From Hydnum rufescens UP504 (taxonomy: Eukaryota; Basidiomycota; Agaricomycetes; Cantharellales; Hydnaceae): 64,000 bases of DNA. The stretch spans positions 164,282 to 228,281 of the forward strand of contig MU128999.1 in the NCBI GenBank assembly GCA_014904985.1, written 5' to 3'. Below, piece after piece: positions 20,501 through 60,403 of this stretch. The notes under the pieces were generated by a model that searched no databases, was not told the origin of the DNA, and saw nothing but the letters and a program-made list of their open reading frames with translations. Position numbers and translations under genes: made by a program. Each line of letters opens with the position of its first letter. The stretch's first letter is position 1.

Positions 20501-21642
20501 ATGGTCAACTCGTGGTGCCTTTGAATGATCTACGACAGCGAGTATTTGACCCCGTTGTCAATGAGGTAGGATTTTTGGACCTAGATCTGGGCCTGCCCAA
20601 AATTCATGCCGCATTTCTCAGGTCCTCAGCTTTCTGGAAGCCCAATTAAAAAGAGTGGACTCAGTGGACGTCCTCCTTCTCGTGGGCGGATTGTCTGCAA
20701 GCCCATATCTTTTTGATCGTATATGGGTATGGACATGGCGTCTTTCGATTTCCTTTATATTTTTGTCACGTTTCGATAAATACAGGATACAGTCCACGTG
20801 CGCATGCATGATAGGATTGTGAATCCCCCAGACCCGGATATAGCGGCATCCCTTGGAGCTGCGGAATCAGGTTTTGCGGAAAGTCTCATGGAACGACCAA
20901 TCGGAGCTCCGGCAATCATTGCTCCCAAGAGTTATATCGTCGGGATCGGTCCCAATCTAGCGATCAGGCCTGGGCGCAACTGGAACTCAGGGAATACTAA
21001 TGAGACGATGAATGACTTCAACGGAGTTTTCGTGTATGTACCAGACTTGGATAGTTGTACATCCCTTGTCGCCTTTCTGATGGATGCCCCTGCCTTCAAG
21101 AACGCGGTATTTAGTGGTCAAGGGCGCATGGTTGAACACGGGAGAACCAGTCCTCCGAGAATTCACGAAGACGTCATATGATCCGTCGGGTAAGAACCCC
21201 TTTCTGCGTAGTATTCGCCTGGACTTGGACGTTCTCATTTATCGCCTGGTTAGATTCTCTTTTTATTGCAAGAATATATGCCTCAGATTCTGCAGAAATA
21301 TGGCCTGATACGAGTAGAGGCGATCTGGAACATATTCTGGATTGGGATATCGATCTTGGTGATATAGCGTTGTTCAAGCAAAATCTCCAGAATTCTCCGT
21401 ATCACTTCAAGACAAGTAAATTGTTCTTCGTGGCTCACTTCGCTTAGTAGTCTAATTGTTTACATAGCTTTTAAGATTGGTATCGAAGTCGAGAGTGGAA
21501 GTGAGTAGACTGCACGCGCTGGATGGCATCTTCACTGAGTCCTTTTGTGAATGTTACAGACGTGCACGTAGCATGGTTTTGTGATGGAAAACGGCGTGGG
21601 CGTTTAAGGTTACCCGGTATCTGGGAATTGAAATCTCTATAG
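17560..21642 (+). pseudogene. Hsp70-like protein, class 2, copy C (linker frameshifts)
   Basis: Exon 1 starts at ATG 17560. Exon 2 is 17746-18093 (HSWNRLG, HEFLLLKV, LWMRLERR, SGDT) and exon 3 is 18170-18322. Exon 3 is followed by a GC donor where classes A, B and E have GT. The linker carries a net 5-base change near 18660-18690 relative to copy B and one G too few before the ATPase, so the frame is lost. Past that point the ATPase exons are open: INLGTVHSG (Asn for the catalytic Asp), VPTCLVYD, SEPEAVAVH, CDAGGDTVV, LLLVGGLSASPYLF. Terminal exon ends at TAG 21640-21642. Its 3' part is nearly identical to copy B. Probably non-functional unless an unrecognised intron removes the linker lesions. 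Confidence 0.75.
19805..21418. repeat. Near-identical tract shared with 12445-14058
   Basis: Counterpart of the copy B tract at an offset of 7360 bases. Identity falls off abruptly after the 'acttcaagacaagtaa' splice-donor segment on the right and before 'gagcatcagcgttaatt' on the left. Confidence 0.7.
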
Positions 21643-24622: not shown

Positions 24623-27600
24623 ATGAGAAAATTTTCGCAACTCAGACCCGAAGAGGTGCATGAACATGCTGATAGCATGAGATGATCCATCCTTGTTGAT
24701 CCGCACTTTCAAGGGAACCACTTCAAGTTCTAGTGATGATGATGCCGAGGCACGCTTTTAACCTGTGTGAATCAGTAGGATCTCACTTGGCTATTTTCTT
24801 GCACAGTACCCGATCAAAGGTCAGGCATCACGTTCTCGCAGTCCTCCCGACCACTCCCCGCGTCCCCGCAGTCTTTCCGGCCTCTCTTCGCGCCCAGCAT
24901 CCGTCCAGTCGCATTTGTTCACCCATTCATGGAATCGTCTTGGCTCATATAGCATTCCCGATCTATGTTCCTACATTAAATCCACACCCCCAGCCCGCAT
25001 CAGTCTCCTGAAATGGTGCAAGGGTCGAAATGGATTGAGACACGAGTTCTTGCTCCTGAAAGTGGACAGAGCGGAAAAGGGCGGGACCATATGGTTGCGT
25101 CTTGAGCGGAGGGCGCACGAGAGCGCCATAGCCGCGAATTGCATCATCTCATCTGTTCTCTCGGGCGATACTGTGAGTACTTGGGCCGGTGCATGGGGAT
25201 CACTTGTTGAAATGATGATAGGTGAAGCTGGGCAATGACTTCTTGCGCTTGTTTAACGCATCGCAAAGCGAAGTTCGAGTTGAGGCAGAATTCACTATCC
25301 CACTCCCTCTGGAAACGCTACGCACTCTTCTATCCGCCCTGATGAAAGAGTCTCCTGATTACAAGCTATATTCAGCGCGTATTTCCTTCTCCATTTCTAC
25401 ACCGTCTATTGATGTAACCTTTACCAGGAGAACTGTTATTTTTTCTGTGCAGTCATATACGAGACCCTCGTTTCCGCGAGTAATGGGGTGAACGTCGCTG
25501 GCGCTCCGAGTAAGTTCTCCAACTCTTTTGCTCCCAAGGCAAAGGCCAGGATCAAAAAGCGCATGGCCAGTTCTTTGTCAGTCTCTTCATCGAGTTTATA
25601 TTTAGACAAGCATTGATGGCACTGTTGCTCTCCTTACAGTTCAGAGCCTTCTGATGGCCCTCCCAGACCCCATCTCCTCACCTCCCAGGAGGCATTCGAT
25701 CCCCGGATCGAACATGAACCTTCGCCCCATAATCAGATCTCAGCTTCCGATCGACCCTCCAGCGTTATTGAGTCTGGGGATGCTGTCCGCCCGGGTATTC
25801 CAGATATCCCTCCACATGTTCGCCCGGATGGTCTTCAAGGGACTCGAAAAAATATTCCCGCAGGTTTAGGTCCTTCCTACGGTTCTCCCTTAAGAGAGAG
25901 GGCGGGAATTGTTAGTTCTATGAAGTCTGTTCGAATAGACCCTGCGTCAGATATGCGCCCAGGTCATCCGGAAGTTCGCCCAGACCTTACCCCCGGTCGG
26001 GGGGGAATTTCCGTGGGGATTAATTTTGGGACTGCGCATTCTGGAGTGGCAGTCGCATATGGCATCTCGCCACACACTATTGAGCAGATGCTATGGCCTG
26101 GGGCAAATCGCAAGGTGCCTACCTGCCTAGTTTACGACACCTACGGCCGTGTCGCTGCGTGGGGCCACATGGCCCAGGGCTTCCGCCTTCCAGAGGGTTG
26201 GATTCGTTGCGAAACGTACTTTGATTATATCTGCATTCTCTTATCCCCTGCTTATGCTCACCTGAAAATAGATTCAAACTTTTGTTCGGTCCTACGGGCG
26301 GCTCAGATCTCATCCCGGGAATCCTCCCTGTATGCGTCACACCTTTCAAAATCAACACCCCTCATCCTGCCGACAATTTATATTTAGTTAGGTAAACAAC
26401 CGATCGATGTTATGGCGGACTACCTGCGCGAGCTCTGGCGGGTACGTTTGCTCCTCGTTCCAGTCATTTTCTCCATAGTAAGGACCATCTCCCCCATATA
26501 GCACGTAAAACCAAAGATCCTCAAGCGCGGTAATTCAGAGGAGGACCTGGGTATGTCACCTGGTTCTCTGTGCCTTCTCTCGACGTTCTTTGGGTAATGA
26601 CGTAAGATTGTAGAATCCGCTGATGTCTGGCTTTGTGAGGTTCATGGGGTCTATCTCGGTGTGATATGGTTTGACACGTCCCATTCGCAGCCATCCCGGC
26701 GACCTGGAATGTGCGAAATGGCGAGATGATGCGAGATGCGGCCTATGCAGCGTGAGCATCGGCATTGATTATCAAGTCGCCTCGCTTATATTCTGTATTC
26801 AGAGGTTTGCCGGCGCCCCGGGGCTCCCAGAAAGGCGCAGGTGGTCGGAATCAGTTACATATTATATCGTATGTCACGCCTTGCCCATTGGGTACGATCT
26901 TTTCATTCAGGATTTCCTGTGCTCAGTGAACCAGAAGCCTGCGCTGTGCGCTGTCTCCTTTGGAGGGATGTGGAGCTCAAGCCGAAGCAGTCTTTCATGC
27001 TGTGTGATGCTGGGGGTGATACCGTAGTGTGTCCTTTTCCGTTGTTCTTTCACCCATTAGGCACTCAAGAATACTTGGATAGGACACAGTGATTTTCCAA
27101 GTCTTGGGGAATGTAACCCATATTTCACCGCTGTGTGCTTCGAGTGCCAGCTGTGGGTTGCATTTCCTGGACATCCACTTCCGCGCTTATCTGGAAGAGT
27201 GGCATAGAACCCGAGGTATCGAATTGAACGAGACGAATCTAGCGTATTATATGGATGCTTTTACGTATTCACGGAAACTTCGGTTTACCGGAAAGCAGGA
27301 CGAGGGAGACCTCCTTTTTGACTGCCCCGATGTTTTCGATTATTGTAAGTCTAATCATACCACACTAATCATACCATAGAATTTGCGCGGCCCAACGTCG
27401 GAATCCTTTCTCGATAGACAGCACTGATCTTTCCGATGACGAGTTTTCCAATGGTCAACTCGTGGTGCCTTCGAATGATCTCCGAGTGCGAGTATTTAAG
27501 CCCGTTGTCACCGAGGTAGGGTTTTTGGACCTAGATCTGGGCCTGTTCGAAATTCATGCCGCATTTCTCAGGTCCTTAGCTTTCTGGAAGCCCAATTGAA

Positions 27601-28590
27601 GAGAGTGGACTCAGTGGACGCCCTCTTTCTCGTGGGCGAATTTTCTGCGAGCCCATATCTATTCGATCGTATATGGGTACGAATATGGCGTCTTTCGATT
27701 TCTCTTACATTTTTGTCACGCTCCGATAAATGCAGGATACATTCCATGTGCGCATGCAAGATAGGATTGTGAATCCCCGGGCCCCGATATAGCGGCATCC
27801 CTCGGAGCTGCGCAATCAGGTCTGGCGGAAAGGCTCATGCAGCGACCAATCGAAGCCCCGACAATCATTGCACCCAAGAGTTATATCGTTGGGATCGGTC
27901 CCAATCTAGCGATCAGGCCTGGACGCAACTGGAACTCAGGAAATACTAATGAGACGATGAATGATTTCAACGGGGTTTTCGTGTATGTGCCAGACTTGGA
28001 TAATTGTACATCCCATGTCAGCTCTCTAATGAACCCCCCTTCGTTCCAGAACGCGGTATTTAGTGGTCAAGGGCGCATCGTTGAAAACTGGAGAACCAGT
28101 CCTCCAAGAATTCACAAAGACGTCCTATGATCCGTCGGGTAAGAACCGCTTTCTGTGTAATATTCGCCTGGACCTGGGCGCTCTAATTTATCGCCTGGTT
28201 AGATTCCATTTTTATTGCAAGAATATACGCCTCAGATTCTACAGAAATATGGCCTGATACGAATGGAGGCGATCTGGAACATATTCTGGATTGGGAAATC
28301 GATCTTAGTGATATAGCGTTGTTCAAGCAGAATGCCCAGAATTCTCGGTATTACTTCAAGACAAGTAATTATCCCTCGTGGCTCACTTCGCTTCGCAGTC
28401 TAACTCTTTATATAGTTTTTAAGATTGGTATCGAAGTCGAGAGTCAAAGTGAGTAGACTCCACGTGCTGGAATCCCATCTTCACTTAGCCTGTTTTGTGA
28501 ATCTTAGAGGCGCACGTAGTATGGTTTTGCGATGAAAAACGGCGTGGGCGTTTAAGGTTACCCGGTATCTGGGAATTGAAATCTCTATAG
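24623..28590 (+). pseudogene. Hsp70-like protein, class 2, copy D (late frameshift)
   Basis: Most complete class 2 copy. The N-domain (HSWNRLG, HEFLLLKV, IWLRLERR, SGDT) is open, as is the linker (about 25640-25990) and the ATPase through most exons: INFGTAHSGVAVAYG, VPTCLVYD, SEPEACAVR, CDAGGDTVV, LFLVGEFSASPYLF. After exon 3 (ends 25374) the donor is GC, not GT. Near 27775-27785 one base is missing relative to copies B and C (they read cccccggacccggat, D reads ccccgggccccgat), so a TAG follows directly and about the last 150 codons are lost. VGEFS replaces the usual VGGFS glycine in the adenosine motif. Copies B-D share the Asp-to-Asn change in phosphate 1, so that change predates their separation. 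Confidence 0.75.
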
Positions 28591-29140: not shown

Positions 29141-30510
29141 CATAAAGAAGTCTTCCCGATTAAACGGGTTTGCTGGGTTCAAAGTCGTCAGCGAGAAGTG
29201 GCTATACAGTGTGTTGTCGGGTGAGACGGATAACGGGAGGTGTCGAATACCATATCATAGTGGCCATTTGCGGGTGGAGTGACGACCCGCACAAAAGGTG
29301 ATCACCTCCGAAGGTCGACTGAAAAAAAAAAGAAACTCCCACCAAGCATGGCGTTGTTCGCCGCTATTTCGGTCACGGTTGTGACAATCATAGAATGGCC
29401 GGTCCAGTATATTGGGGGGCACGCTTCATCTACCTTCTCTAACCCTGACCGAATTTCGGTGAACATTCCGACTCGAGTTCTTGGGAAACATGACCACGAC
29501 GCCGTCTTCCCTGCTGAAGTTATATGTCACATGGACGGCTCAAAGAAGGGACATGCTAAGTGCAGGTAGCTCGTCCCAACTTGAAGACACTGGTGACAAA
29601 ACACTGGGGCGTCCGCCCTCGCAAGTCTAGGAGGACCCCTTTCCAGGAGGCCGGGGGACTGGTCAGATCGGGAAGGCGAATTTGAACCACAAAGAGGGGG
29701 GACGGGGGGCCACGCCAAAACAGTCGTCAACAATTTGGCCAAGCCGATAAAAACTAACAGACCTTCATGCCATTGATGGTTGCTGTAACGTTCCGAGAAA
29801 GGGACATGGCTGATTTGCTAGGAAAGTCGGAGGAAGTATTGACCCCCTCCCGATGAAAGATAGATGCTTGCATACGACTGAACGAACGGAGAAACAATTT
29901 TTCTGGAAACGATTCTGTCAATAGATTGCCCTCTAGTCAAGACAAATACGCACGGCATAGCTTGGACGCAGGGAACTCTTTCCTTAGGATGGACAAAAGG
30001 ACATTAAGGGTGTGCGAAGACAACAGATGGCTGAAATCAGTTTCAACTATGACCTCACTTTTCGATTTGAACACGAGTGGAGATTCGCACACACCTCTGC
30101 CTGCACAGACAACCAACCACCTCCTCACCTAAAGTGACCTCAATAAATCTATGCACAATGAGCATGCTCACAGTGTCGTCAGACGGAGATCTCGAAGATA
30201 TCAGACGGGCGAGTGTTGCATTTCGCCGCCGACGCCTTTTGACACGCAGCCAGAAACGCTTGGGCCTTCTCGCGGAAGTAAGAATTCTGGAGGTGACCCT
30301 GTCAGTTCCTTGCACCATTTGAAAGGCTGATGTGAGCGGTGTGAGCTCCGTCAACGTATGCGCGTAGATTGGAAATGGTGTAGGCGCTAGGGATCCACCA
30401 TGAGTGGGTGAACGAGATCGCACTAATTTATGATGGCATGTGGAATCACCATCGAAGGCGCATCAGTTGAGGTGGATATGGGCTGAGAAGGCGGTCCCAG
30501 ACAGTGCGAA
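29140..30510 (-). pseudogene. NLR remnant 4: shared N-domain, P-loop deleted
   Basis: The minus strand carries the N-domain pieces FWLRVKRR and SSRSPSDDTVSM near 30250-30160 and VETDF...LLSIL near 30050-29970. The segment equivalent to WLHGP is missing: sequence matching both flanks of the P-loop is joined across a deletion around 29400-29415. Frames are broken. Smallest of the five remnants. It lies head to head with copy E, about 0.65 kb away. Confidence 0.55.
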
Positions 30511-31144: not shown

Positions 31145-34100
31145 ATGGTTGAGGAGGTGCATGATCTCACAAGGGTATCCGTTCTTGTTGATCCCCGCAC
31201 TTCCACAGACACAGGACGGATCACGAAGGCACGTTTAATTCGCTTCTATGGGCTGATCGCTCACTTGCTTCCAGTTTGGGGAACAGTCCCGCTCCATAGG
31301 TCGGGGTTCTTCACAGGGGGCAGATCGTCCCCATTCTTCCTTGATCTCTCCCCTCTTTCACACTCTCAACTTGTCCACACCATCGGTGCGATCAGACTTA
31401 TTTAGGCACTCATGGCATCGTCTTGGGACGTATAATATCCCTGATCTATGCTCATACATCGCGTTCACCCTTCCGACTCACATCACTCACCTGAAATGGT
31501 GCAAAAATCAGGATGGAGTTAAGCATGAGTTCTTGCTCCTGGAAGTCAAACGGCCTGACAATCAGACCACCGTATGGCTACGTCTTGAGCGTAGAGTGCA
31601 CGAGAACGTCAGGGCCCTGAGATCCATATTCTCCTCTGTTCCGTCGGGCGATACTGTGAGTAATCTCATATGCCGATGTGAATCATATCTCTATACGTCC
31701 TTTGCTTCTAATCCCATGCCGATCTATTAGGCGAAGCTCTGTGCTGATGTCTCGCGCCTGTTTGATGCGTCACGAAGCCAAGTTCAAGTTGAGACAAAAT
31801 TCACGGTCCCACCACTTCTGCAAAGGCTAGGTGATCTTTTATCTATCCTGATGGAAGATTCTCCCGATTATAAGCTATACTCGGTGCGTATGTCTCGCTA
31901 CATTTCTCCAATGTTGACTGATACGACCATTTCAGGAGAATTGTTACTTTTTCTGTGCGGTCATATATGAGAATCTGGTTTCCATGGGTAAAGGGATGAA
32001 TGTCGTCGGCGTTCCGAGCAAAATTTCTCTGTCGCTTGCTCCACAGCTGAAGGCACAAATAAAAAGGCGTATGGGCATGTGGCCGTTAGTCTGTTCATTG
32101 CCCTTAATTTGGGCTGACCATCGATGTCACTATTGACGGTTCCCTTGTAGCCCAGAGCCCTCTCTTAATATCCCAAGTCTCGGACCCCAGGATTCCTTAC
32201 CGACGGAGGGGCTGGCTACTTCCACTCCCCCCATCGAGCTCCACCCGAACGAGGTCTCGGTTGTCCAGCAGCCGGAAGAAGTGATTCCGAACCACCCTCA
32301 CTTTCATGGTAATAATGGCCGGCTAGCCACCTCTGTGCAACCTAGCCTCCAATCACCTCCCCAGCATCACCAACCGCCGTCGACACCTTTGCAGTCGCCC
32401 TCTCCTGCGCAGATACACTCTAAAACTTCCCTTGATGCGAATCAGAGCCCCTACGAGCAACCGTTGTTTTTTAGTAGCTCAAATTTGAATGGTCTGAACA
32501 CTGCACACTCCGCAATCAACGGGGACAGCAATCCAGGAGCATACACGCCTTTCCTTGATCCAAATGTTCTGTGGCCTAGCCCCGTGCACTCGCATGATCA
32601 TCCAGGCTCCATGCGATCCATGTCAATGTCGCCCTCTGCGTCTTTGTCCCGCAACTCTAGCTTCTCAAGTTCAAGCACGCACGTCCAACATGTCTCCAAC
32701 TCTCCGGAACCCAGTCGTGCGTCCTCGGACGAAGGTAGGATGTCTGTTTCGATCGACTTTGGCGCCACATTTTCTGGCGTAGCGTATGGTTCTGCACGTG
32801 TCGCATCAGGCAAGGTACAGCAGATTCTTTCCTGGCCCGGTGCGAGCGGGAATTTCAGCAAGATCCCGACTTGCTTGGTGTACGATGGCATGGGCCGTGT
32901 GCTCGCCTGGGGTCTTCATGCAAATAATTCAAGTCCTAGGCCTGGGACTACACGTTGTGAATGGTGAGCATTCTTCTTCTTTCTCTGGGATAAGAAGATC
33001 AATACTCCAGGAAGGTTTAAATTATTAGATCCGACGGCCCTTCGAGATGGCGAGGCCGTTGATCTTCATCTGCCAAAACTCCCCCCTGGAAAACGGGTCA
33101 TTGACCTGATCATTGACTTCCTCGCGTGCATGTGGGACGTGAGCATCATTCATTTGAGCGTTAATGGCGCGGGTCTCACTATGTTTTCTCCAGTGCGCTA
33201 AAGCGCAGATTGCCCGCAAAATTGGGGTCGTCGCAGATCTAAGTACGTGCCCTTACTTCTAGGATGGCATGGATTCCTCTGACTTGTGACCACCATACTC
33301 CAGATGCTGCTGATGTATGGCTGAGTGGGTTGCTTCATTTCATGCATGTCTTGCCATTGAATGTACGATCTCCCCATAGCCGTCCCGGCTGCTTGGGGTG
33401 CCCGTGGCTGCCAAATCATGCGTGATGCTGCTCTTTCGGCGTAGGTGACAAGGGTGGGATTTTGATACTTACTGAGAGCATGCTTGCTTCTTTCCAGGGG
33501 TTTGGTTAGTTCTGCATTTGCAGATGACTGTGACTGGCCCGACCGACTGCACATTATCACGTTCGCTCGTAATATTCATCTAAATGTTTTCATTTGGACC
33601 TGATGCGTGACCATATAATCAGAGAGTCGGAGGCTGCAGCTGTGCACTGTGCACATTTAACAAATTTGCACCAACTCAGACCCAGCCAGAACTTCATGAT
33701 TTGTGACGCTGGAGGTGGTACTGTTGTGCGTTTCGTTCCATCTCGTGATTTGGAATGCATTTCACCTCATCGAATTTGTCTGCAGGATTTGGCGGTTTAT
33801 AAAATCATTGGTTCCCTTACCAACCTTGAGATTGCGGAAGTGTGTGCGCATTCGGGCTCCAATTGTGGCTCCCTTTTCCTTGATCTACGATTCAGGGAGC
33901 TCGTTCGCAATCTTCTCGCAAACCACCCGGCCCACCTTGATCCTGCTAGTTTAGCTTACTTTATGCATACTTTTTCTGAGACAGATAAGCTCACGTATAT
34001 GGGAGAAAGCGATGATTCAAATATATTCCACTTCACTTGCCTTAATCCCGAGGATCTGGGTCAGTTCTTTATTCACGCGGTTAGAACTCTTTGCGTGCGG

Positions 34101-35241
34101 ACTTGACTCATGTGAGTTTAGACGACCCCGCTGTGGGTCTTATCAACGGCAATTTGGGGATTCCAGGATACCTCTTACGTCGTGAGGTTTTCGACCCCGT
34201 GGTGGAGCAGGTAACGCATTCCAAAATTTTTGATGCCCCTAAACTCTTCGCATGATCTTGTTTCGTATCGCACTCTAAAGGTCCTCAAGCTTATTGAAGA
34301 ACAGATCCGGAGAGTGCGCATTGATGCGCTTCTCCTTGTGGGTGGTTTCTCGGGCAGCGAGTATCTGTTCAAGCGTGTCGACGTAAGTGTCTTTGGCTGC
34401 AGTTGATGCAATTGCTCATCCCACTATCCTAGGAAACCTTTGGCTCCCGCATCAAAGTCATAGCACGTCCTTCAGATGCGGATACGGCGACCTGCCGTGG
34501 TGCTGCTCAATATGGCCTCGCGCGTCCCCCGCTTGTTTCTTCGATCATTGCTCCGAAGAGTTATATCATACATGTGCAACTTCCCGCGGAGCCAGAAGAT
34601 TGGCGGAGGCGGCCAGCATATATCAAGAAGAATGATATTGGGTTCGACATCTGCGAGAATCGGTAAGACCAGGTTCTTCTCCCGGTGCCAATAATATGGC
34701 TCACGCGCTTGAGCTCAGGTTACAATATCTAGTATCCAAGGGTTCGATCTTGCGGAAAGGTCAGATGATTAAGACCACATTCTGCAAATTTTCAGCAACA
34801 CTACTAGGCGCGTCCCATCTGGTACCCCCCTCGGAGGTCCCACTGAAATCTGACGGTTAAGTCGATAGACCGAAACTTCGTCGCGACAATTCATACCTCA
34901 GATTCTGATAAGATCGTACGGTACACTGACGAAGGCAGAACCTCGGAACTCTGTCAGTGGACCGTTGACCTTGGTTTACTCCCCGGTTTCCAGCAGAATG
35001 CGAGCAATGCTCCTGGAGGTTTTTACACTGGTATTTTAACCGTGCTGGATTTTGATTCAAAACTGACATTTCGGGATTACAATAGACTTCGAACTTGCGG
35101 TGCAGTTGGATGGTGCTGGCAAGAGCTAGCTTTTTTTCTCCATCTTAATAACAAGCTGATTTTTGTTTGACAGAGGTTCGTGGGGTACTCTTATATGATG
35201 GACATGAGTGTGGAAGTGTGATCTTCGATGTCCTGATTTGA
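31145..35241 (+). CDS. Hsp70-like (HSPA12-type) protein, class 1, copy E, most intact
   Basis: I could read this copy exon by exon without a frame break. The ancestral start is ACG at 31124, so the next in-frame ATG (31145, MVEEVHDL) is used. The N-domain reads HSWHRLG, HEFLLLEVKRP, VWLRLERR, SGDT, VQVETKF, LLSILMEDSP, YFFCAVIYENL. The linker exon, about 32152-32964, is long and rich in Ser, Pro, His and Gln. The ATPase shows SIDFGATFSGVAYG (first Thr of GTT replaced by Ala), KIPTCLVYD, ESEAAAVH, CDAGGGTVV and LLLVGGFSGSEYLF. Exon 7 is a 21-nt microexon (33304-33324). One late intron (donor at about 34806) begins GC. The last exon ends at TGA 35239-35241. This type of protein is a cytosolic ATPase by family; its partner is unknown. 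The nearest gene on its left is NLR remnant 4, transcribed away from it. Confidence 0.85.
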
Positions 35242-35797
35242 GTGGCTGTTTACTCTAGACATTCCTTGTATGTGTCACTCTCTATGCATCCTACATTTAC
35301 TTCCATCTCTTGTTTTAATCCAGCGATTTGATTACGAACGGCCCTCATTTGGTTGCTTGGGTGTCAACTGAAGTTGCAGGCTTTCACTTCACTTGGAACC
35401 CCCGTCCCACACACCGAATCCAGGAATTTTGTGGACTTGATAAGTAGAGATGAGGATGTTAGAACGGTGCAGCTAATAGCCGAAGGCATGGAAGTCATGC
35501 CGACCACACATACTATAGTGTAAATAACTTTGGGTCGTACTATATTCCACGATCAGCCCTGCAGTACTCAATATTAAAACGTGGCCATTTGTATTTGTAC
35601 ATCCGAACGCAATCCGTCGGTCCGAGAGTCGATTTGAGTAGTGGCTGTGTAAGCGGCAGATCCTTTCAAACCGAGTCTCGAGTGGGAGATATTTCTATCC
35701 ACCGATCAACGAATTGAACCTGTGGGACCAGGCCTGCAGCGCGTGTGTGGATCATTGGAGATTCAGAGTCTAAGAAATAGAAGGAAAGCTGGGTCAC
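35242..35797. other. Intergenic between copy E and the NACHT-WD40 remnant
   Basis: Holds the 3' flank of copy E and that of the convergent NLR remnant. No open frame of interest and no recognisable element. Confidence 0.4.
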
Positions 35798-37226
35798 CTA
35801 GGAACGTCGCGTTAATAGCATGTAATGCCCACCAATAGAAAATTCAGCAAAAAGAGTGTCGTTTGTACGGTTTAATTGTGCAATGATTGTACGCAATACG
35901 GTGTCCCACAAATGCCCTTCGCGGTCCTCCGAGCAGGATGCCAAACGCAACCCGTCGAGCGAGAGTATAACTGACATAACCGACTTCGAATGACCTTTTA
36001 GTGTCGCATTGTGCGCCCCCAACAGGGCATCGCACAGCCTCACTGTTCCATCATGACAGCCCGAGGCTAGCTGCAACCCATCAGGAGAGAATGCAAGGGA
36101 ATTGACCCAGTCAGGATGACCTTCCAGCATCATGATGGACGTGCCCGACATGGCATCCCACAATCGCACTGGCCCATCATCTGAGCAGGAGGCTAATCGC
36201 AGCCCATCAAGGGAGAACACAACTGAATTCACCCAGTCGGAATGGCCTTCTAGTGTCTTAATTTGTGCGCCCGAAATCAGATCCCGTAGATGCCAGCCGC
36301 CGCCCGTCAGGAGAGAGCGCAATGGACTTGACTCTGCTAGAATGGCATTCCAGCGTTACAGCATGCCAGGCTAACATAGTGTCCACAATCGCACTGCACC
36401 ATCGTCGGAGCATGAGGCCAGCCGCAACCCATCGGGGGAAAATGCGACGGGTTTGACCTAGTCACTGTGGCCTTCCAGTGTTCCAACGTGTGCACCTGAT
36501 GGGACATCCCATATCCGCACTGTACAATCATAAGAGCAAGAGGCCAGCTTCAACCCCCTGGGAGAGAATGCTATTGAGTTGACCCAATCAGAATGACCTT
36601 CCAGTGTTACAATGGGCGCGCCCGACAGAGCATTCCACAGCCATATTGTAGAGTCATCCGAGCACGAGGCCAGCCACAACCCATCGGGAGAGAACACAAC
36701 TGACCGAACCCTGCCAGAATGGCCTTCCAAGGCAGCGATACATGCTGGCGGTACAACCTGCCACAATTGGAGGGTTCAATCATGCGCCCAGTCACAGCCC
36801 ACCGGGAGAGAATGCAGTACAATAGATCTCATCGGCATGGCATTGCAGAATGGCAATGGGTGCACCGGACATGGCGTCCCACCATCGTACAGCTCCATCA
36901 TCCGAGCACGAGGCTAGCTGTGACACATTGAGAGAGAAAGCAATAGACTTTACGCCACCAGAATGGCCGTCCAGTGTCAGAATGTGGGCAGCCGATACGG
37001 TGTCCCACAACCGCACTGTGCGATCATCCGAGCATGAAGCCAGCCGTACGCCTCCAGGGGAGAATGCAATAGACTTGACCACACCAGAATGATCTTCAAG
37101 GGACAGAATCCGCGAGCCCGACTCCGCATTCCACAATTGCACCGTGCAATCATTCGAGCACGAGGCCAGCTGCAACCCGTCGGGAGAAGACGCCACGTAA
37201 TTGACCCAATTAGAATGATCAATCAA
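35798..37226 (-). repeat. WD40 repeat array, about eleven 126-bp units
   Basis: Units of about 42 residues follow the pattern EGHSxWVxSxAFSPDGLxLASCSDDxTVRLWDAxSGAxIxTL. Repeats 1-3 lie in 37226-36830, 4 is broken by a frameshift, 5-6 lie in 36740-36480, 7 and 8 are damaged, and 9-11 lie in 36250-35880. The repeats resemble one another closely, as in the high-identity WD40 arrays of fungal NLRs that diversify by unit exchange. Confidence 0.85.
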
Positions 37227-39110
37227 TGCTCAAGCAGAGGGGCCAGCGAGACTCCACGCCTTCAAGGACGACAATCGACTATATTTCTCGATGAGAATAG
37301 GTTTTATGGGGGTGGTGCCGCGAGGGGTGAACGGTAATATACGTGTAGTGCATAGGCTCCGATGGTTTCTGCGTGGGCAAGAATGAAACAGTGCGCATCG
37401 GACAATATTGCCAGTGCAGCCGTTGGGTGGCGGAATCTTGAAACGATACACAGCAACATCAAAGAGGGGTGTACTTACCGCCCATCGAAAAACCGCGTTG
37501 ATGCTTCCAGCGGCAATAGGGACACTGCCAATGCGACTCATGGCCTCAAACCACCACAAAGTTATCTTCATCTAGAACATCTCTAGCGCTTGCATAACTG
37601 CCACATCTCCGTGTTCCGCACGCGATACACGAGGCAAGGAGAATAGTGAGTCGCCCCTTTTGATGCGGGAAACTCCAGTCATGCCTGTGGATCTATTGTC
37701 ATACAGCCTTGCTCAGTGTTTTGGACCGCCAGATGAAGGCAGGAGACGCCGACATCCCGTGGAGCAAACAATCTGTATTCAACAGGTTGGAGTGTCACAG
37801 CCAAGTGCCAGGGATCCGGTGCTATTGCAAGAAGTCTTCCCGATTAACCGGATTCGTTAGGGGCTACCAGTCGTCGTTAACGAGAAGTGGCGACACGGCG
37901 TGTCATCAGCCGAAACGGACGGGAGGTGTCGAGGGTCATATCACCGATTGTCTGTTTGCAGGTGGGAAAGATTAGTGACGGCCCGCGCACAAGGCGATCA
38001 CCAAGGCCCGACTGAAAAAAAAGTCCCACCAAGCATGGCCCTGTTCGCCGTTCTTTCGACCACAGTTGGAACAATCATAGAGTGGCCGGTTCCGGCGGGT
38101 CCATGGAGCCAGTATTAGGGACACGATATCATCGACCTTATCCAACCATGACAGAATTTCGGGGAACACTCCGACTGGAGTGCCTAAGAGACATGACCAC
38201 GACACCGCCTTCCCAGCTGGAGTCATAAACCGCATGGACCGCAAGAAGAAGAGACATGCCGAGTGCAGATAGCTCATCCCAACTTGAGGATACTGGCGAC
38301 TGAACACTCGGCCGGACGTCCGCCCTCGCGAGAGGTCCCCTCGGGAGGAGGCCGTGGGACTGCTAGATCAGAAAGTCGAATTCGAACCACAAAGAGGGGG
38401 ACACACCAAAACAGCCATCAATAATTTGGCCAAGCCGATAAAGACCCAAGAGTCTTTCACGCGATTGATGGCTGCTGTGACATTCGGAACAGGGGACATG
38501 GCCAAGTTAGCAGGAAAGTCGGAGGTTCACCCCTCTCTCGATGGAAGATAGATGCTTGTACGCAACCGCATAAAAGAAGGAACGATTTTGCTAGAGACGA
38601 TTCTGTGAATAGAATCAATAGATTTCCCTCCAAGTCAAGGCAGATACGCACCGGTCACGGCATGTATGCAGGGAACTCTTCCCATGGGATGGACAGAAGG
38701 ACATTAAGGGTGTGCGAAGGCGACGGATGTTTAAAATAAGTTTCAACTATGACCTCGTTTTTCGATTTGAACAGAGTGTGACGACCCGCGCTCACTTCTG
38801 CCTGCATAGACAAACACCTCGTCAGCTGGGGTGGCTTCAATAAACCTATGCACAATGAGCATGCTCACAGTGTCGTCGGCCGGGGATCTCGAAGAGATAG
38901 GCGGGCGAGTGTTGCATTTCACCGCAGACGCCTTTCAATACGCAGCCAAAACCGCTTGGTTTGCGGGCCTTCTGCGTGCAGAAGCAAGAATTCGTGAGGA
39001 ACCCCTGTCATTTCCTTGCACCGCTTTGAGAGGTTGATGTGAGCGGTAGGAGTCCGGTCAATGTATGCACGGAGATTGGAAATGGTGTAGGCACTGGTGA
39101 ATGAGACGCT
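35798..39110 (-). pseudogene. NLR remnant 5: shared N-domain, NACHT and WD40 repeats
   Basis: The only remnant that keeps the full NLR order. From high to low coordinates on the minus strand: N-domain near 39110-38860 (YTISNLRAYI, GVPHEFLLL, FWLRIERR, then a stop, then NATLARL and DDTVSM in another frame); VETYF...LLSI near 38790-38680; P-loop WLHGPAGTGHS near 38115-38080 (His for the Walker A Lys); an open stretch 37571-37230; and WD40 repeats 37226-35798. Stops include TGA at 37230-37232 and TAG at 36458-36460, with a frameshift between 36792 and 36766. NACHT-WD40 proteins are fungal NLR-type receptors implicated in nonself recognition, where the WD40 array binds the ligand. It is divergent from copy F, whose start codon is about 370 bp away. 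Confidence 0.7.
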
Positions 39111-39481
39111 AATTTTCGATGGCAGGTGGAAGGTCCATCGAAGGGGTATCAGTTGAGATGGATGTAGATTGAGAAGACGATTCCATATTGAGATATAGTG
39201 TGCTCAAACATTGGAGAATGTGTTCGCGTCGATGGGGGGACATTGCATTTTTCTGACCACTTACGTAACTGAATTGTGCCCCTGCTTCTGCGCGCGCCAA
39301 GCATGAGAACTGAATTGGGCGTCGAGGATGCCTTGAAAAGGCTCTGTTTGGAATATCTTCTGATTGGTTATAGCTGTGCCGAGCACTTCTCACTTCTCTT
39401 TATCTCTTGTAAAGGGTGCAGTCAGTGCACTCTCCACACCCTTAGTGTTATAAACGCCTTTGCTCAGAGCGAGAAGCCAAG

Positions 39482-41113
39482 ATGAGCGAGGCCCCACCCC
39501 AGATGCTTGAAGAGGTGTATGAATCTGCCAATATCCTGAGGGATCCCTGCTAGGTTCTCCCCGCGCTTCTATGAAGACCCTATGGAGCTCGAACGTACAT
39601 CTTTCTCACCCGTACGCGTTGATAGGATCTCACTTGCTTTCACTTTTGGGAACAGTCCCGCTCCACACGGGGGGGTTCCCCACAGGGAGCAGACCGCCGC
39701 CGTTCTTCCTTACTCTCTTCCCTCTATAACGCACTCAACTTGTCCACACCATCGGTGCGATCAAACTTATTTACGCACTCATGGCGTCGTCTTGGGACGT
39801 ATAACATCCCTGATCTGTGCTCTTACATCGAGTTCACTCCTCCGACTCCCATCACTCGCCTGAGATGGTGCAAAAATCAGGATGGGGTTAAGCATGAGTT
39901 CTTGCTCCTGAAAGTCGAACGACCCGACGATGGGAAGACCGTATGGCTGCGTCTTGACCGTCGAGTCCACGAGAACGCCAGGGCCGTGAATGCCGTATTC
40001 TCCCCTGTGCCGTCGGGCGATACTGTGAGTAGTCTCGTGTACCAATGTGAACCATGTCTTGATAGCCTCTTCTGGCTCTAATACCGCGCCCATATATTAG
40101 GTGAGAATCTGTTCCTATGTCTCGCGCCTGTTTGATGCGTCACGAAGTCAAGTTCAAGTTGAAACTGAATTCGCGATCCCACCACTTCTGCAAAGGCTGG
40201 GTAATCTCTTAACTATCCTGATGGAAGATTCCCCAGATTATAAGTTATACTCGGTGCACATGTCCCAGTACGTTTCTCCAACCTTGACTGATGCGGCCAT
40301 TCCAGGAGAATTGTTACTTTTTTTGTGCGGTCATATACGAGAATCTTGTTTCCATGGGTCGAGGGGTGAATGTCGTCGGTGCTCCAAGCAGATTTTCTTT
40401 GTCACTTGCTCCAGAGCTAAAGGCGCAGATAAAAAAGCGTATGGACATGTGGCCGTTAGTCTGTTCATTGCCCTGACATCCGGACTGAGCATTGACGACA
40501 CTATTGACGGGTGCCTTATAGGTCAGAGCCTCCTCCTACTATCCCAAGTCTTGAATTCCCAAACCCCTTGCTTCCGGAGTGGTCGGCTAGTTTCGCATCC
40601 CTCCCCGTCGAACAGGATTATGTCAACCACCCCTTAAAAGCGCCCGAGGAGTCCCCTTCTATAAGCGCCTATTCCGACCTGGGGACAGAGTACTTCCGCC
40701 TTGCTGGGTCGCAGGCCAAAGAATCCAGTCATGCCATCAAAAATCCGACTGAGAGGCGTAAGGCACCCATGAAGGCTGCTCTCCCCCTTCCTAAGCCACA
40801 GCGGCCATACCCTGCCAGGTTGATCTATGACAAGGTCAACAAGTGTACGCGCCGCTTGTTTTGTTTTGAAAGGAGAATCCAAACATCTGTATTTAACAGG
40901 GAGACTACCACCTCTCAAACGTATTCAAAGGAAAAGGATCCCAACAGACCGCTTGGTTGGGTCCTCTCCACCGCAGTCTGCTGTGCCTGGCCATTTTTTA
41001 GAACGACGGTACTCGCCTAGTCCAGGGGAGCGTGGTGATTTCAATCCCATTGATGTGACTGGTGTGCACACTTCAGCTTTTGATCAGATGGGCTCTAGTT
41101 ACCTCCCGAGTAG
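39482..41113 (+). pseudogene. Hsp70-like class 1, copy F, 5' part cut by a copia element
   Basis: Start codon at 39482 (MSEAPPQMLEEV). The N-domain is intact: HSWRRLGTY, HEFLLLKVERP, VWLRLDRR, SGDT, VQVETEF, LLTILMEDSP, YFFCAVIYENL, LAPELKAQIKKRM. The linker begins near 40533 with SEPPPTIPSLEF and stays open to 41113, where the copia LTR begins. The ATPase domain is absent on this side. A collinear but more diverged ATPase piece lies beyond the transposon at 46799. Whether both come from one gene is open: the N-domain is close to copy E, while the ATPase piece is not. Confidence 0.75.
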
Positions 41114-41508: not shown

Positions 41509-44500
41509 AGCGCGATATAACCCGAGTCTAGTCATGTGATAGTCCAGTTTCGCAGCCCCGAGGGCTTTTGTTAAAATGTCGGCCATCATAGTCTCTGTGG
41601 GACAATATACCAGGTTGAAAATACCGTCTTTAATTGTCTCATGGATAAAATGAAAATGGATGTCGATATGTTTTGTTCGGGCGTGATAGTTATCGCCCAT
41701 TGAGAGCTTTAATGCAGCCTGGTTATCGCAATACAGGGTTGTGGCCTTGAGTTGAGTGTGAAACAACTCGGCAATGAGGCTCTGCAGCCAAATGCCTTCT
41801 TTGGCAGCCTGCATTGCGGCGACGTATTCTGCCTTGGCTGTTGATAGCATAATTAGCTCCTGTTTTTGGGAGCTCCAGGAGACCGTTCCTCCGTCGATCA
41901 GGTAAGCATACCCTGTAATCGCGTGGCAATGTTCCTGCATTGCTCCGTCCGCATCCATATACCCGAGTAAGTTGTGACTTTTCAATCCGTACATTAGGCT
42001 GATATCTTTCGTGCCTGATAGGTACCGTATAGCTCGCTTTGCCATTTCCCAATGCATAGGTCCCGGCTGGTCAAGAAATCGCAATAGTGTTGATACCGCA
42101 AAGGTAATGTCTGGCCTTGTGGCCACAGATGCGTACATGAGGCTTCCTATGGCCTTGCGATATGGGGTCTTCTTCATCCATTCAATTTCTTCAGGATTCA
42201 TCATGGGATCCTCTTTTGTGAGTGTGGCCCCGGGTTCCATTGGCGTATTTACGAATTTCGAGTCACCCAAAGAGAACCGGGCTACAATTGAATCAATGTA
42301 TGACTTTTGTGATAATTGGATCATTCGTAATTCGTGGTCCCGTTCGATTTTAATGCCAAGTAGCCAGTGAAGTGGCCCTAAGTTGGTAATTGGGTATTTG
42401 TTGTTAATCTTCTGCTTGTATTTGTCAAGTAATGCCCTCAACGGGCCCGTAAATGTGCAATTGTCCACATGGATTGCGAGAATAAGCTCCTCCCCATTCA
42501 CTTGGGTATGGAACACACCCGGATCGGTGTGGCTAGCCCTGAAACCAAGATCATTAAGGGTGCGTGAAAGGGAATCATACCAGTGTTGCCCAGCCTGTTT
42601 GAGACCATATAGGGTCTTCCGTAGTTGTAGAATTGTGTCTTTTCCCTGGGGTTTATACTCGGGGGGAAAATGCATATAGATTTCTTCGTTTTCGTCGAGT
42701 TCACCATTGAGGTATGCACCATTGAAATTGAAAGAGTCGATATCCCAATCATTTCATGCAGTGAGTGCGATAATCGTTTGAAAACTTGCAAGTTGCGTGA
42801 CAGGGGAATACGTTTCGTAGTAGTCAACTCCAAAGATTTGAGTAAAACCACAGGCAACTAGACGTGCCTTGTATTTTAGAATGGTGCCATCAGCTTTCTG
42901 TTTGATTTTGAAGACAAGTTTACAATCGATGATGTTTTTGTTGGGTGGTCTTGGGACTTCTTCCCAAGTTCCAGCATCTTCGACGGTCTTGAGCTCGATA
43001 TCTATAGCTTGTTTCCATCATGGCCAATCCATTCGTGACTTGGCCTCTTCCAGGGATTTTGGATCTCCGTCTATATCTTGAATGGTCACGAAAGCCGCGT
43101 TGTTAAATTCTATATGATAGATGGTGTCATTTAGGAGAGATGCTGAATTCTTGCTGATATTATCACCACTCCCCCTGACGCCGGGGATCTGAGAGTCAGA
43201 TTTGTGTGTGTATCCATGAACTGTCCCTTCACCCTGTGCGAGGCATTGCACATATTGAGATGGTTTGGGGACACGTGTGGAGTGTCGTTCAGGTTCAGTG
43301 GGTGGGGTCTGTTCTGGCATAGGAGGGGGTTCGGTGGGGGTAGTTGGCCTAGAATTTAGGGTTTTGTCATCATCTGAGTCTTTGGGATCTGGAGAGTTGT
43401 TGTTGGTTGGCAGGGAATCTATCCATGGCCTTGAGCTCGTAACTGGGGGATCGACAGAAATGTCAATTGTCAAGGTAGTGAATTTTATGTTACGTTCGAC
43501 GGAAATTTTGTTCCTTCCCTTCCAGTAAACCCTATGAGCATGTGGGCTATCATTATCATAGCCCACCCAGAAGGCCTCATTTGTGCGTTCATTGAGTTTT
43601 GATCCGGAGTCATTATGAACCCAGACTTGTTGGCCCCAAATAGGGATATTCGCAAGGTTCGGCTTTTCCTTCGTAAGCCATTCGAGTGGCGTCATGTGGC
43701 CTAAGACATGTGTAGAGGTACAGTTTTTGAGCCAGATGGCCCAATTCACAGCCTCGCCCCAGAGATTTTTTGACAATTGGGATTGATGTAACATAGCATG
43801 AGTTCATTCGAGAATCCGCCAATTCAGTGATTCAGCAACTCCGTTGTGCTGGGGAGTATCGTGGGTGGTTAATCGGCGCTCTGTGCCCTGATCCCCTAGA
43901 AACTTCATGAATGCATGACTTGTGTATTCACCTCCGTGGTCAGATTGAAGCCGTTTAATTTGGACTCCGTGCTGTGTCTTCGCCCAAGCTGCGAAGTCTT
44001 TGTAGGCATCAAGTGCCTCATCCTTCATACATAATAGTTGAAGCTTTGTATATCTCATGGCGTCATCTGTAAACGTGATGTAATATGAGTGCCTGCCTAA
44101 GGAATTTAGGGGTGATGGCCCCCAAACGTCTGTATGAATTTCCTTGCTGAATGAGGAGGCAAGCGGGGCTGTCTGCTCTTTCTTGATGGCCTTCTGTGTG
44201 GCCTTGGCATACTTGCAGGAGTCACAGGAAAAATCCTTGATGTCATCAATTAGGTCGATGCCCTTGATAACGTTGTTTTTGATAAGTGTGCATATTGTAT
44301 CGACTGAAATATGGGCCAATTGTCTGTGAAGATCCGAGAGCTTCACTGTCTCACATGCAATTGTAGCTGCCAAATTAGTGTGTTTGACTTTGTATAAGCC
44401 ATTATCGCTGCCAGAGATGCATCCAATAAGGACACCTTTCAGGTTTTTGATTTTGCACAAGTTTCCGTTGAATAGGACTTTGTGACCCGCTTTTGTAATT

Positions 44501-45651
44501 TGGTTTATTGAAATGACCGTTAATCCGAGTTCTGGAGCATGGAGGGCATTGCACAAGATGACTGGGGTGAATTTCCCGTCATTCGGCACTTGAATCTTTA
44601 AGTTGCTGGCACCAATAGCATGGAATACTCAGTTATTAGCTGCAAGGATTGGGTGAGGGTCGATAGGATGGTAATTAATGAATTGCTCCTTATACAGAGA
44701 CATGTGTCAGGTGGCCCCTGAATCGTATATTTCAGCATAAGCAGGGGATTTCATCTGTTCATTCATTGTTGCTGTGATATCTGGCTGTGGTCCAATGGCC
44801 TCGATTGTTGCCCATGCCTCAATGTTGGCATGTGCAGCTGCTGAGGTGCTTTCCTTAGCACCCGTCCTAGAGTTCAGTGATCCATGGGGTCCCTGGCCTT
44901 CCTTTCCTCCCCCTTTCACCCAACAGTCTGCTTTGAAGTGTCCCTTTCGGTGGCAATTGAAGCACTTGACATCCTTCTTGCTCTTCCTTTGCCCGTTGGC
45001 ATGGAAGGCCTCGTCGTTATTTGATTTGGACTTCCCCTTCTTCAGGGTTCGCTGGTCATACTTGTCTGTCATGAGGCAGATTACCAGAGTCAGCGTAATA
45101 GACTTGCCACTGAGATCCGCGGCAGCCATAATCGAATTTATCATATTATCGTATGAGTCGGGGAGTGATCCCAATAGAATGTTTCCGTATTCTTCATCCA
45201 GAATAGTGGCGCCCATGGCTGCCAACTGCTCTTTAAGATCGGACAATTTGTCGAAGTGCGCACGGACATCGTCATCTGCGCCGCAGTGAGTATTCTGTAA
45301 TCACTTTCATAAGTCGACCAAAATTAACTTCGACCATCCTTTGTATAAAGCCCGGAGCTGATCCCAGACCTCCTTGGCTTTTAGTCCAGCCTTAATCTGG
45401 CTGAACACTGTATCGGGGACCGAGCTGGCCACAAGTTGTTTAACCATGGCCTTGTCCTTCTTCCATCGAGCCTCCAGCGTAAGTCCATCAACCATACCAG
45501 CAGCGCTATAGTCTGATGTAATTGCGTCACTCGTAAGGTGCTCAAGGAGCCCTTTCGCATCGAGGGCCCACATAATCCGGTCACGGTATGTGACCCAGTT
45601 CATACCGTCTGCTGCCAATTTCGTAACCTGAATCTTGAATTCGTCACTCAT
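41506..45651 (-). pseudogene. copia gag-pol polyprotein, 1382-codon frame with seven TGA stops
   Basis: A single reading frame without frameshift. Gag: MSDEFKIQVTKLAADGMNWV start, zinc knuckle CFNCHRKGHFKADC near 44970. Protease: YDSGAT near 44710. Integrase: HRQLAH...CDSC zinc site, HTDVWGP, SDHGGEYTS and VAESLN as the DDE residues (44330-43830). Reverse transcriptase: YETYSPVTQ, NFNGAYLNG (motif A) and HVDNCTFTG (motif C). RNase H: YMDADG and KAEYVAAMQAA. Stops are at 45307-45309, 45301-45303, 44707-44709, 44629-44631, 43804-43806, 43018-43020 and 42754-42756; all are TGA. Catalytic positions expected to be Asp are Asn in motif A (42727-42729) and motif C (42460-42462). Both fit G-to-A change. 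Confidence 0.9.
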
Positions 45652-46798: not shown

Positions 46799-48249
46799 CT
46801 GAGGGCCCCAAGTAAGTGGCTACCAAAACTCCCACGGCCCCAGGAAATCAAAATTTTCGTTTCTATTGATTTTGGGACAACCTATTCAGCTGTGTCGTAC
46901 ACCACTTCCACCAATGGGAAAGTGATTCCAATCGTTTCTTGGCTGGGATCAAACGATCCCTCACGCAAAATCCCAACATGCCTACTGTATGATGATCTAG
47001 GCAATCTTCACACTTGGGGCCTTGAGGCAAAGGAGGTCAATCTGAGGATAGGATGGGTTCGCTGTGAATGGTTAGCTGTTGCCTTGCATCCAAACATTTT
47101 GAGAGGCCAATTGACTTTGATAATAGGTTTAAGTTGTTGCTGGATCCAGAATCCGCAACTAGCACCATCAGTACATTACTTCCGGTGAGAGTTGCCCCCA
47201 TTTTGGAATATAGTTTCCTTCTGATGACATTTTAGGCCGGAAAACTGCCTCCAGATGTGGTAGTGGATTTCCTTTCCTCCTTATGGACGGTATTTGTAAA
47301 CTGGTATATAGTCTTATATATGACCTTGATGCCTCTAATTTTCCACAGTATGCTAAGGAAGAAATTCTTCGAAACACTGCATTGGACATTTCAAATGGGC
47401 ACAACATGCCTCTCTCAATATCCTCATTAGACTTTGTGGAGATTTACCTAAGTATGTTACCCCTAGAGACTCCGACACCCTGCCTCTGATTTCAAGTACA
47501 GCTGTCCCAGCATCATGGGATGCACACAAATATTTATTGTTGAGGGAGGTGGCTATCGAAGCGTGAATATTGTCCAGTTATTGACAAATGTACTTGGCTG
47601 ACGGATGCGGAAATAGTGGCCTGATTGTTCCAGAGACACCCCAAGACACACATTGGGAGGAATGACTACATATCATACCGTACGATCCGTAATTTCTTAA
47701 GACTTACCTATTATCATACTCAGCATGTATACGGTTTCTTTGATGAACAGTGAGACGCAGGCATCAGCCATTCATCCTGTGGCTCTGATGAATTTTCTGA
47801 TGGATCAGAAATTCATGATATGCAATGCTGGTGGTAGTTCCATCGTATGTCATCACCCATTCACGTTTTCGGCACACTCAAGATCCTGTAGGACATTGCT
47901 ACCTACAACATCGACCGTGCTTGGGGAATGCCCAAAATCACCGAAGTCTGCTTGCGCTCCGGGTCATACTGTGGATCCCTGTTTTTGGATGTCCACTTTC
48001 ATGAGCTTGTGCGAGCGTGCCTTGTGGACCATCCATTGCATCTGGACGAAGCGAGTTTGGCTCATTTTCTGCTCACATTCTCTGGGTCAGAGAAACTGCA
48101 TTATTCCAGCCCTGTGGATGATGCAAAGATGTTCCATTTCCCATGTCTTCGCTTCCAAGATTCAGGTATGCACCACTTCCTTGATGTGTGTCTAGGTATA
48201 TTAATGTTCAACCACGTGTGCCCAGATGACCCCTCAGTAGGTATGACAT
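46799..48249 (+). pseudogene. Diverged Hsp70-like ATPase fragment (F')
   Basis: Exon pieces of the ATPase: VSIDFGTTYSAVSY, KIPTCLLYDD and WVRCEW (46850-47070); FKLLLDP (47129 on); LPPDVVVDFLSSLW; YAKEEILRNTALDIS (47349-47392); VPASWDAHK (near 47500); ASAIH and MICNAGGSSIV (47760-47845, Asn and Ser-Ser where class 1 has Asp and Gly-Thr); then a long exon 47890-48165 with ITEVCLRSGSYCGSLFLDVHF. It ends shortly after DDPSVG, where the minisatellite begins, so the adenosine motif and C-terminus are gone. Only about half of the ATPase residues match copies A and E, much less than among the array copies. Confidence 0.7.
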
Positions 48250-60205: not shown

Positions 60206-60403
60206 GTTGGGCCAGAAATAAGAATCAACAAGCTTCTTGTAGGTTGGATCTCACCCTCTATGGCCTGAGTTATCATGGGCTTCCTTCATAAGCTCTATTT
60301 GTCTCTCAGGATCCCATATAACAAGTTGGGGTAGGCCATGGTGATGTCTCCAGATTCAGTCATCATATAGGAAGTATTGGCATGTTGTTTGAATAAATGA
60401 CTT

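What the first reader, a model, noticed from the sequence alone, without database searches (positions are those of the whole stretch)
31145..41113. One N-terminal domain shared by divergent Hsp70-like and NLR genes
Seen: the ~150-residue N-domain of the + strand Hsp70-like copies (HEFLLL; VWLRLERR; SGDTV; VQVETEF; LLSILMEDSP; FFCAVIYENLVSMGRG; SLAPELKA) has a collinear counterpart at the start of the - strand NLR remnants (HEFLLL; FWLRIERR; S[PH]xDDTV; VIVETDF; LLSxxxEExP; FFCSVIYKCLSSVGRG; SLAPNVRA). Clearest are NLR 5 (39.1-38.7 kb), NLR 3 (23.9-23.5 kb) and NLR 4. The two gene types sit head to head. Known: fungal NLRs often share an N-domain with the adjacent effector (NWD2/HET-S). Inference: the shared domain lets an NLR and an Hsp70-superfamily ATPase signal to each other. 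I know of no described pair of this kind.
Basis: partly seen in the sequence, partly recalled or inferred. Interest (0 to 1): 0.88.

Follow-up and report, generated by a model that had tools for sequence, protein, structure and literature searches.

The report
One domain on two ATPase switches
In a hedgehog mushroom, immune-receptor-like genes and Hsp70-like genes standing back to back begin with the same enzyme-like domain, but in the pairs that could be read at least one partner is broken, so the domain looks more like a part mounted on two kinds of molecular switch than a proven signalling pair.

Summary
The window lies in Hydnum rufescens UP504. Six + strand Hsp70-type copies (five with a body) and five - strand NACHT-WD40 (NLR) remnants begin with homologous ~170-residue domains; profiles of either set find the other far above shuffles, and two phase-0 introns sit at matching places. 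It is a tandem array of one ancestral head-to-head unit. All five window NLRs are broken; Hsp70-like copy 5 is intact and copy 1 nearly so. The only near-intact NLR of this type found (contig C225) has no head-to-head partner, and its tail-to-tail Hsp70-like neighbour is broken. The domain also occurs alone in Hydnum and, in Cantharellus anzutake, on a NACHT-TPR NLR, on an RA-SH3 protein and doubled; no Hsp70 fusion was among those hits. His, Asp/Glu, Tyr and Asn-Cys are strongly conserved, and the predicted fold resembles circularly permuted papain-like (LRAT-type) enzymes; that is suggestive, not proven. Best reading: a Cantharellales, probably enzymatic effector domain mounted on two unrelated ATPase switches. 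The proposed NLR-to-Hsp70 signalling stays possible but is weakened. No such pair turned up in the papers searched.

The parts
31428..32068 (+). N-domain of Hsp70-like copy 5 (three exons: 31428-31655, 31731-31883, 31936-32068); putative His and Asn-Cys conserved
   Evidence: start codon not found, coding similarity continues upstream (S-x-LF-x-HSW)
32156..34857 (+). Low-complexity linker and Hsp70-superfamily (HSPA12-like) body of copy 5; no lesion called over N-domain and body, 14 introns
   Evidence: the query was assembled from this copy, so this shows an open spliced frame, not similarity; weak collinear match to yeast SSB1
35801..39089 (-). NLR5: N-domain, degenerate NACHT (Walker A reads GTGHS), WD40 repeats; pseudogene with 9 stop and 15 frameshift calls
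39797..40612 (+). N-domain and start of linker of Hsp70-like copy 6; body not contiguous
41509..44628 (-). Ty1/copia-type retroelement pieces (RVT_2, SH3_retrovirus, gag_pre-integrs, rve) between the copy 6 N-domain and the next Hsp70-like body
   Evidence: the Ty1/copia label is from the domain set, recalled
46910..48161 (+). Hsp70-like body with no N-domain match of its own; possibly the displaced body of copy 6
   Evidence: linkage to copy 6 is inference
3541..6655 (+). Hsp70-like copy 1, N-domain lesion-free; one frameshift and four deletion calls, all in the fast-evolving linker
10518..13587 (+). Hsp70-like copy 2 (second lineage), five frameshift calls, N-domain included
17866..21176 (+). 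Hsp70-like copy 3 (second lineage), five frameshift calls; the one in the N-domain is probably a GC-AG intron
24945..28125 (+). Hsp70-like copy 4 (second lineage), three frameshift calls and one stop call; the frameshift call in the N-domain is probably a GC-AG intron
8619..9882 (-). NLR1 remnant (N-domain and start of NACHT region)
15618..16697 (-). NLR2 remnant
22973..24061 (-). NLR3 remnant
29326..30382 (-). NLR4 remnant

Best explanation
Shown: one homologous ~170-residue domain with two shared phase-0 introns starts both the Hsp70-like genes and the NLR genes of this array; it is also a standalone protein and, in Cantharellus, part of an NLR, of an RA-SH3 protein and of double-domain proteins. 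Shown: the window is a tandem array (steps of 6.5-8.4 kb) of a head-to-head Hsp70-like/NLR unit in which the NLR halves have decayed. Inferred: the domain is a catalytic effector of the circularly permuted papain-like (NlpC/P60, LRAT-like) kind, with His at a strand, Asp/Glu on the next strand and Cys at the start of a helix, acting as a thiol hydrolase or acyltransferase on lipid or protein. Inferred: it is mounted on two unrelated nucleotide switches, a STAND NLR (NACHT-WD40 or NACHT-TPR) and an HSPA12-like actin-fold ATPase, each of which would hold it off or cluster it on in response to its own cue (non-self or damage). The two genes would thus be parallel receptors for one output rather than sender and receiver.
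Confidence: 0.5

Rival explanations
1. Paired signalling: the NLR oligomerises on sensing non-self and its N-domain recruits or templates the N-domain of the adjacent Hsp70-like protein, which executes the response. The broken NLRs of this strain would be recent losses or alleles, and the C225 NLR could serve the many Hsp70-like copies.
For: 9 of 10 NLR-type domains lie head to head with an Hsp70-type domain; the near-intact C225 NLR is tail to tail with another; in Cantharellus the NLR P0011 has a domain 73% identical to that of P0001, and three of the four hits carry the same longest-contig length, 770264; domain sharing between an NLR and a neighbouring effector is an established fungal arrangement (PMC3321046, abstract).
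Against: Among the loci that could be read, none keeps both halves intact (at C91:139065 only a fragment at the edge of the fetched stretch was read); 14 of 23 Hsp70-type domains lack an NLR match upstream; the Hydnum NLR and Hsp70-type domains are separate clades sharing 41-57% identity per exon; the window pairs are copies of one unit.
Confidence: 0.25
2. Accident of genome turnover: an inverted duplication placed the 5' exons of one gene in front of another, and the array then expanded as a neutral tandem repeat; the shared domain has no common job.
For: Many copies, decay of the NLR halves, retroelement pieces in the array, further copies on other contigs.
Against: dN/dS well below 1 for Hsp70-type and standalone S domains; conserved His, Trp-x-Arg, Asp/Glu, Tyr, Asn-Cys, Phe-Phe; the same domain on an NLR in a second genus with a different repeat type.
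Confidence: 0.14
3. The domain is a homotypic adaptor (death-fold-like in role) and not an enzyme; conserved His and Cys are structural.
For: Standalone T copies lack the Asn-Cys and three of four are lesion-free; fold matches to enzymes are weak.
Against: His, Asp/Glu and Asn-Cys are kept in 6 of 6 Cantharellus and 6 of 6 standalone S domains, and the Y-x-L-x(3)-N-C-x-x-F spacing is that of bacterial LRAT domains.
Confidence: 0.11

Closest known systems
NWD2/HET-S type NLR and effector pair (Podospora)
   Same: An NLR and an adjacent gene carry a homologous module; the genes are clustered (PMC3321046, abstract)
   Different: Here the module is a ~170-residue predicted globular, enzyme-like domain rather than a short amyloid motif; the partner is an Hsp70-superfamily protein; no intact pair was seen
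Fungal NACHT-WD40 and NACHT-TPR NLRs
   Same: C225 copy: NACHT/NPHP3_N then WD40; Cantharellus P0011: NPHP3_N then TPR
   Different: The N-terminal domain fits none of the 12 annotation classes listed in PMC4986451 (passages), where only about 15% of basidiomycete N-termini received an annotation
[quoted passage not shown] CLN5)
   Same: His before Cys, Asp/Glu on the strand after the His, Cys on a helix, Y-x-L-x(3)-N-C-x-x-F as in the LRAT domains read here
   Different: No family-level sequence match; fold match only suggestive; fused to ATPase switches
HSPA12-like Hsp70-superfamily proteins
   Same: ATPase motifs (IDFGATFSG, DAGGGTVD, LLVGGFSGS) and collinear weak match to SSB1
   Different: Extra N-domain; 7 of the 13 contigs with Hsp70-like matches show no N-domain match at E up to 1e-5

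Membership tests
Permuted papain-like NlpC/P60 (LRAT-like) enzymes | Order His then Cys, both conserved | tested here: met
   His 12/13 and Cys 13/13 lesion-free Hsp70-type, 6/6 standalone S, 6/6 Cantharellus; Cys absent in 4/4 standalone T
Permuted papain-like NlpC/P60 (LRAT-like) enzymes | N-terminal five-stranded sheet, helical second half carrying the Cys, extra strand after | tested here: met
   Predicted model only, pLDDT 80.8, against the description of BcPPNE in PMC3142127 (passages)
Permuted papain-like NlpC/P60 (LRAT-like) enzymes | Structural similarity to solved members | tested here: inconclusive
Permuted papain-like NlpC/P60 (LRAT-like) enzymes | Sequence-profile similarity (PF04970) | tested here: not met
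   No Pfam match; PF04970 0 hits in genome; hhalign probability 28% against five LRATs
Permuted papain-like NlpC/P60 (LRAT-like) enzymes | Thiol catalysis | not testable with these tools
   Needs biochemistry
Fungal NLR (STAND NACHT-WD40) | NACHT with Walker A followed by repeats | tested here: met
   C225 copy NPHP3_N 101 bits, NACHT 38 bits, GLAGTGKS and WD40 frame; one apparent frameshift between them. Window NLR5: WD40 yes, Walker A degenerate
Hsp70 superfamily, HSPA12-like | Actin-fold ATPase motifs in order | tested here: met
   sequence; collinear phmmer match to SSB1, E 0.013. The motif knowledge and the HSPA12 label are recalled
Hsp70 superfamily, HSPA12-like | Pfam HSP70 match | tested here: not met
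   0 families at E up to 10
NLR/effector shared-module pair (NWD2/HET-S like) | Homologous module at NLR N-terminus and on adjacent gene | tested here: met
NLR/effector shared-module pair (NWD2/HET-S like) | Both genes intact at one locus | tested here: not met
   NLR half broken in 5 of 5 window pairs; of the other five NLR-type loci, four show lesions or only a fragment in one half and C91:139065 was read only as a fragment at the edge of its fetched stretch
NLR/effector shared-module pair (NWD2/HET-S like) | Signal passes from NLR to effector | not testable with these tools
   Needs genetics

The most novel reading that the evidence does not exclude
An Hsp70-superfamily ATPase has been recruited as an NLR-like immune switch: the same LRAT-like thiol-enzyme effector is mounted on a STAND NLR and on an HSPA12-like protein, which once stood as a head-to-head pair, and in this lineage the Hsp70-type chassis has largely replaced the NLR.
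Probability: 0.3. Interest if true: 0.86.

Novelty: new variant of a known kind. Interest (0 to 1): 0.6.

Why it matters
If true, nucleotide-switch immune receptors in fungi would not be limited to NLRs: an Hsp70-family ATPase would carry the same output domain, and basidiomycete NLR N-termini, mostly unannotated in print (PMC4986451 and PMC9815663, passages), would gain a candidate enzyme class that can be tested by mutating one Cys. It would also offer a reason for the many HSPA12-like genes in this mushroom.

Tried and rejected
Rejected: chance motif similarity (shuffles). Rejected: recent gene conversion between NLR and Hsp70-type domains (separate clades). Considered and dropped: a short amyloid-type motif (the domain is ~170 residues with a predicted globular fold). 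The first fold with 10 rows was poor (pLDDT 51) and its matches are not used. Fold searches without a clear relative; LRAT and YiiX/PPPDE entries are not among the rows shown, which excludes nothing. No relative confirmed in viral contigs (44 pattern matches, none confirmed by tblastn). Pfam HSP70 does not match the body. Contig-level co-occurrence of N-domain and Hsp70-like matches (6 shared, of 13 and 13 contigs entered by hand, out of 539; hypergeometric P 8e-8; 4 shared and 3e-5 without C91 and C225) is not weighted for contig length, so I give it little weight. By eye, one of the 90 listed NACHT matches (90 of 139 candidates were scored) lies in the same gene as an N-domain match; a marginal N-domain match (E 0.008) on C6 lies about 5.5 kb from a NACHT match and was not followed. 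Frameshift calls at the second intron of copies 3 and 4 are probably a GC-AG intron. Some frameshift calls in diverged genes may be artefacts of my aligner.

Rows dropped: 4 of 44 domain stretches covering under 140 query residues; three degraded rows before the tree; 14 of 46 rows (10 with two or more lesion calls, 4 of T type) before the LRAT comparison, leaving 32. Not all N-domain places were fetched (contigs C87, C110, C149, C39, C269, C247, C187 and others were not), so counts by architecture cover the window and 30 other loci only.

Literature searches for a described NLR/Hsp70 shared domain or an LRAT-like NLR domain: (listings of an open-access library, only the best-ranked rows shown); none seen.
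Full report
Where it is. The window is contig C91:164282-228281 of a 63.2 Mb, 539-contig genome.

Observation. I wrote a splice-aware protein-to-genome aligner and read 44 domain stretches in the window and 30 other loci. The window has six + strand copies (3541, 10518, 17866, 24945, 31428, 39797) and five - strand copies (9879, 16694, 24061, 30382, 39089), in steps of 6.5-8.4 kb. A profile from 16 Hsp70-type domains of C91 scores the C225 NLR domain at 198 bits and the five window NLR domains at 72-122 bits; the reverse profile (8 rows, one of them the C26 standalone) scores 22 of 22 Hsp70-type domains at 82-185 bits; of 920 shuffles the best scored 5.8 and 7.9 bits. Two phase-0 introns lie at the same alignment places in NLR, Hsp70-type and both standalone classes: one after the first exon, one just before the Asn-Cys motif. 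A few degraded copies deviate or lack one.

The Hsp70-like side. Copy 5 reads as one open spliced frame of 859 residues with 14 introns and no lesion called (the query was built from it). Its body carries IDFGATFSG, DAGGGTVD and LLVGGFSGS and aligns collinearly, weakly, to yeast SSB1 (E 0.013); Pfam HSP70 does not match, so the HSPA12-like label rests on recalled motif knowledge. Copy 1 is nearly intact (one frameshift call and four deletion calls, in the linker), copies 2-4 form a second lineage with three to five frameshift calls each, and copy 6 keeps only the N-domain and start of the linker. Retroelement pieces lie at 41.5-44.6 kb and an Hsp70-like body without an N-domain match follows at 46.9-48.2 kb, so copy 6 may have been split by the insertion (inference).

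The NLR side. Aligning the C225 NLR to the window, NLR5 spans 39089-35801 with 9 stop and 15 frameshift calls and a degenerate Walker A (GTGHS); NLR1-4 align over about the first 335 residues with 2-4 stops and 5-10 frameshifts, and WD40 repeats were found only in NLR5. Shuffled and wrong-strand controls of the NLR5 stretch score 45 and 47 against 514-2576. The C225 copy has an open N-domain to NACHT frame (NPHP3_N 101 bits) and a long WD40 frame, with one apparent frameshift between them. By eye it is the only one of the 90 listed NACHT matches that shares a gene with an N-domain match.

Pairing. Nine of 10 NLR-type domains have an Hsp70-type domain on the other strand within 2 kb upstream; the exception is the near-intact C225 copy. 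Seen from the other side, 9 of 23 Hsp70-type domains have an NLR match there and 14 do not, in 1.5-2.0 kb searched. The C225 NLR is tail to tail with an Hsp70-like gene that has 17 frameshift and 4 stop calls. So at nine of the 10 loci a break or only a fragment is seen in at least one half; at the tenth (C91:139065) I read only a fragment of about 45 residues that runs into the edge of the fetched stretch. The window pairs descend from one unit and are not independent evidence.

History. In a tree of 43 rows the Hydnum domains fall into an NLR clade (99/96), an Hsp70-type clade (93/83) and two standalone clades, apart from the Cantharellus domains. Median dN/dS is 0.31 for lesion-free Hsp70-type, 0.27 for Hsp70-type with lesion calls, 0.32 for standalone S, 0.52 for standalone T, 0.64 for window NLR pairs and 0.38 for C225 against window NLRs. 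That fits constraint on the former and relaxed constraint on the window NLRs, but it reports past selection.

Other carriers. Protein searches found five named Hydnum records and two metagenome proteins of standalone size (7 hits) and four Cantharellus anzutake proteins: an NLR with NPHP3_N and TPR (P0011), an RA-SH3 protein (P0001) and two proteins with two copies each (P0009, P0010; the second copies read by eye and recovered by the profiles). Three of the four carry the same longest-contig length, 770264. No Hsp70 fusion was among them; that search admitted proteins of about 400 to 1270 residues that share exact words, so absence is not proven.

Mechanism. I think it most likely that the domain is the output enzyme and that NLR and Hsp70-like bodies are alternative switches for it. 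The steps shown are homology, shared introns, conservation, decay of the window NLRs and the several architectures; catalysis, switching and a role in defence are inferred.

Novelty. Fungal NLR N-domain surveys list 12 classes (PMC4986451, passages) and later additions (PMC9815663, passages); 'LRAT' and 'papain' do not occur in the main text of the latter and 'hsp70' occurs in neither. Searches listed no paper on an NLR/Hsp70 shared domain.

Noticed in passing
window 41509-44628 (-): Ty1/copia-type retroelement pieces between the copy 6 N-domain and the next Hsp70-like body; the sixth gene may have been split by it.
   Followed up: partly
window 59021-62825 (-): Integrase_H2C2 match and a sub-threshold RVT_1 match: probably a second retroelement near the contig end.
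   Followed up: no
window 48270-48509: Minisatellite with units of 63, 42 and 24 bases just after an Hsp70-like body.
   Followed up: no
L042, L043 and L044 (C24): Four same-strand tandem pairs of two standalone forms of the domain: one with the Asn-Cys and one (T) without it, three of the four T copies lesion-free; a natural Cys-less partner beside a Cys-bearing one.
   Followed up: partly
L040 about 2850-7000 (-), C225: Downstream of an Hsp70-type N-domain lie long, strongly repetitive frames (units like EQLPDKFSVATQTEQTVERHPITPI) in place of an ordinary linker.
   Followed up: no
contigs C158, C53, C247, C253, C96, C185, C182, and C88, C110: Many more Hsp70-like (HSPA12-like) matches in this genome (127 exon-level matches on 13 contigs, a lower bound); seven of the 13 contigs have no N-domain match at E up to 1e-5.
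   Followed up: partly
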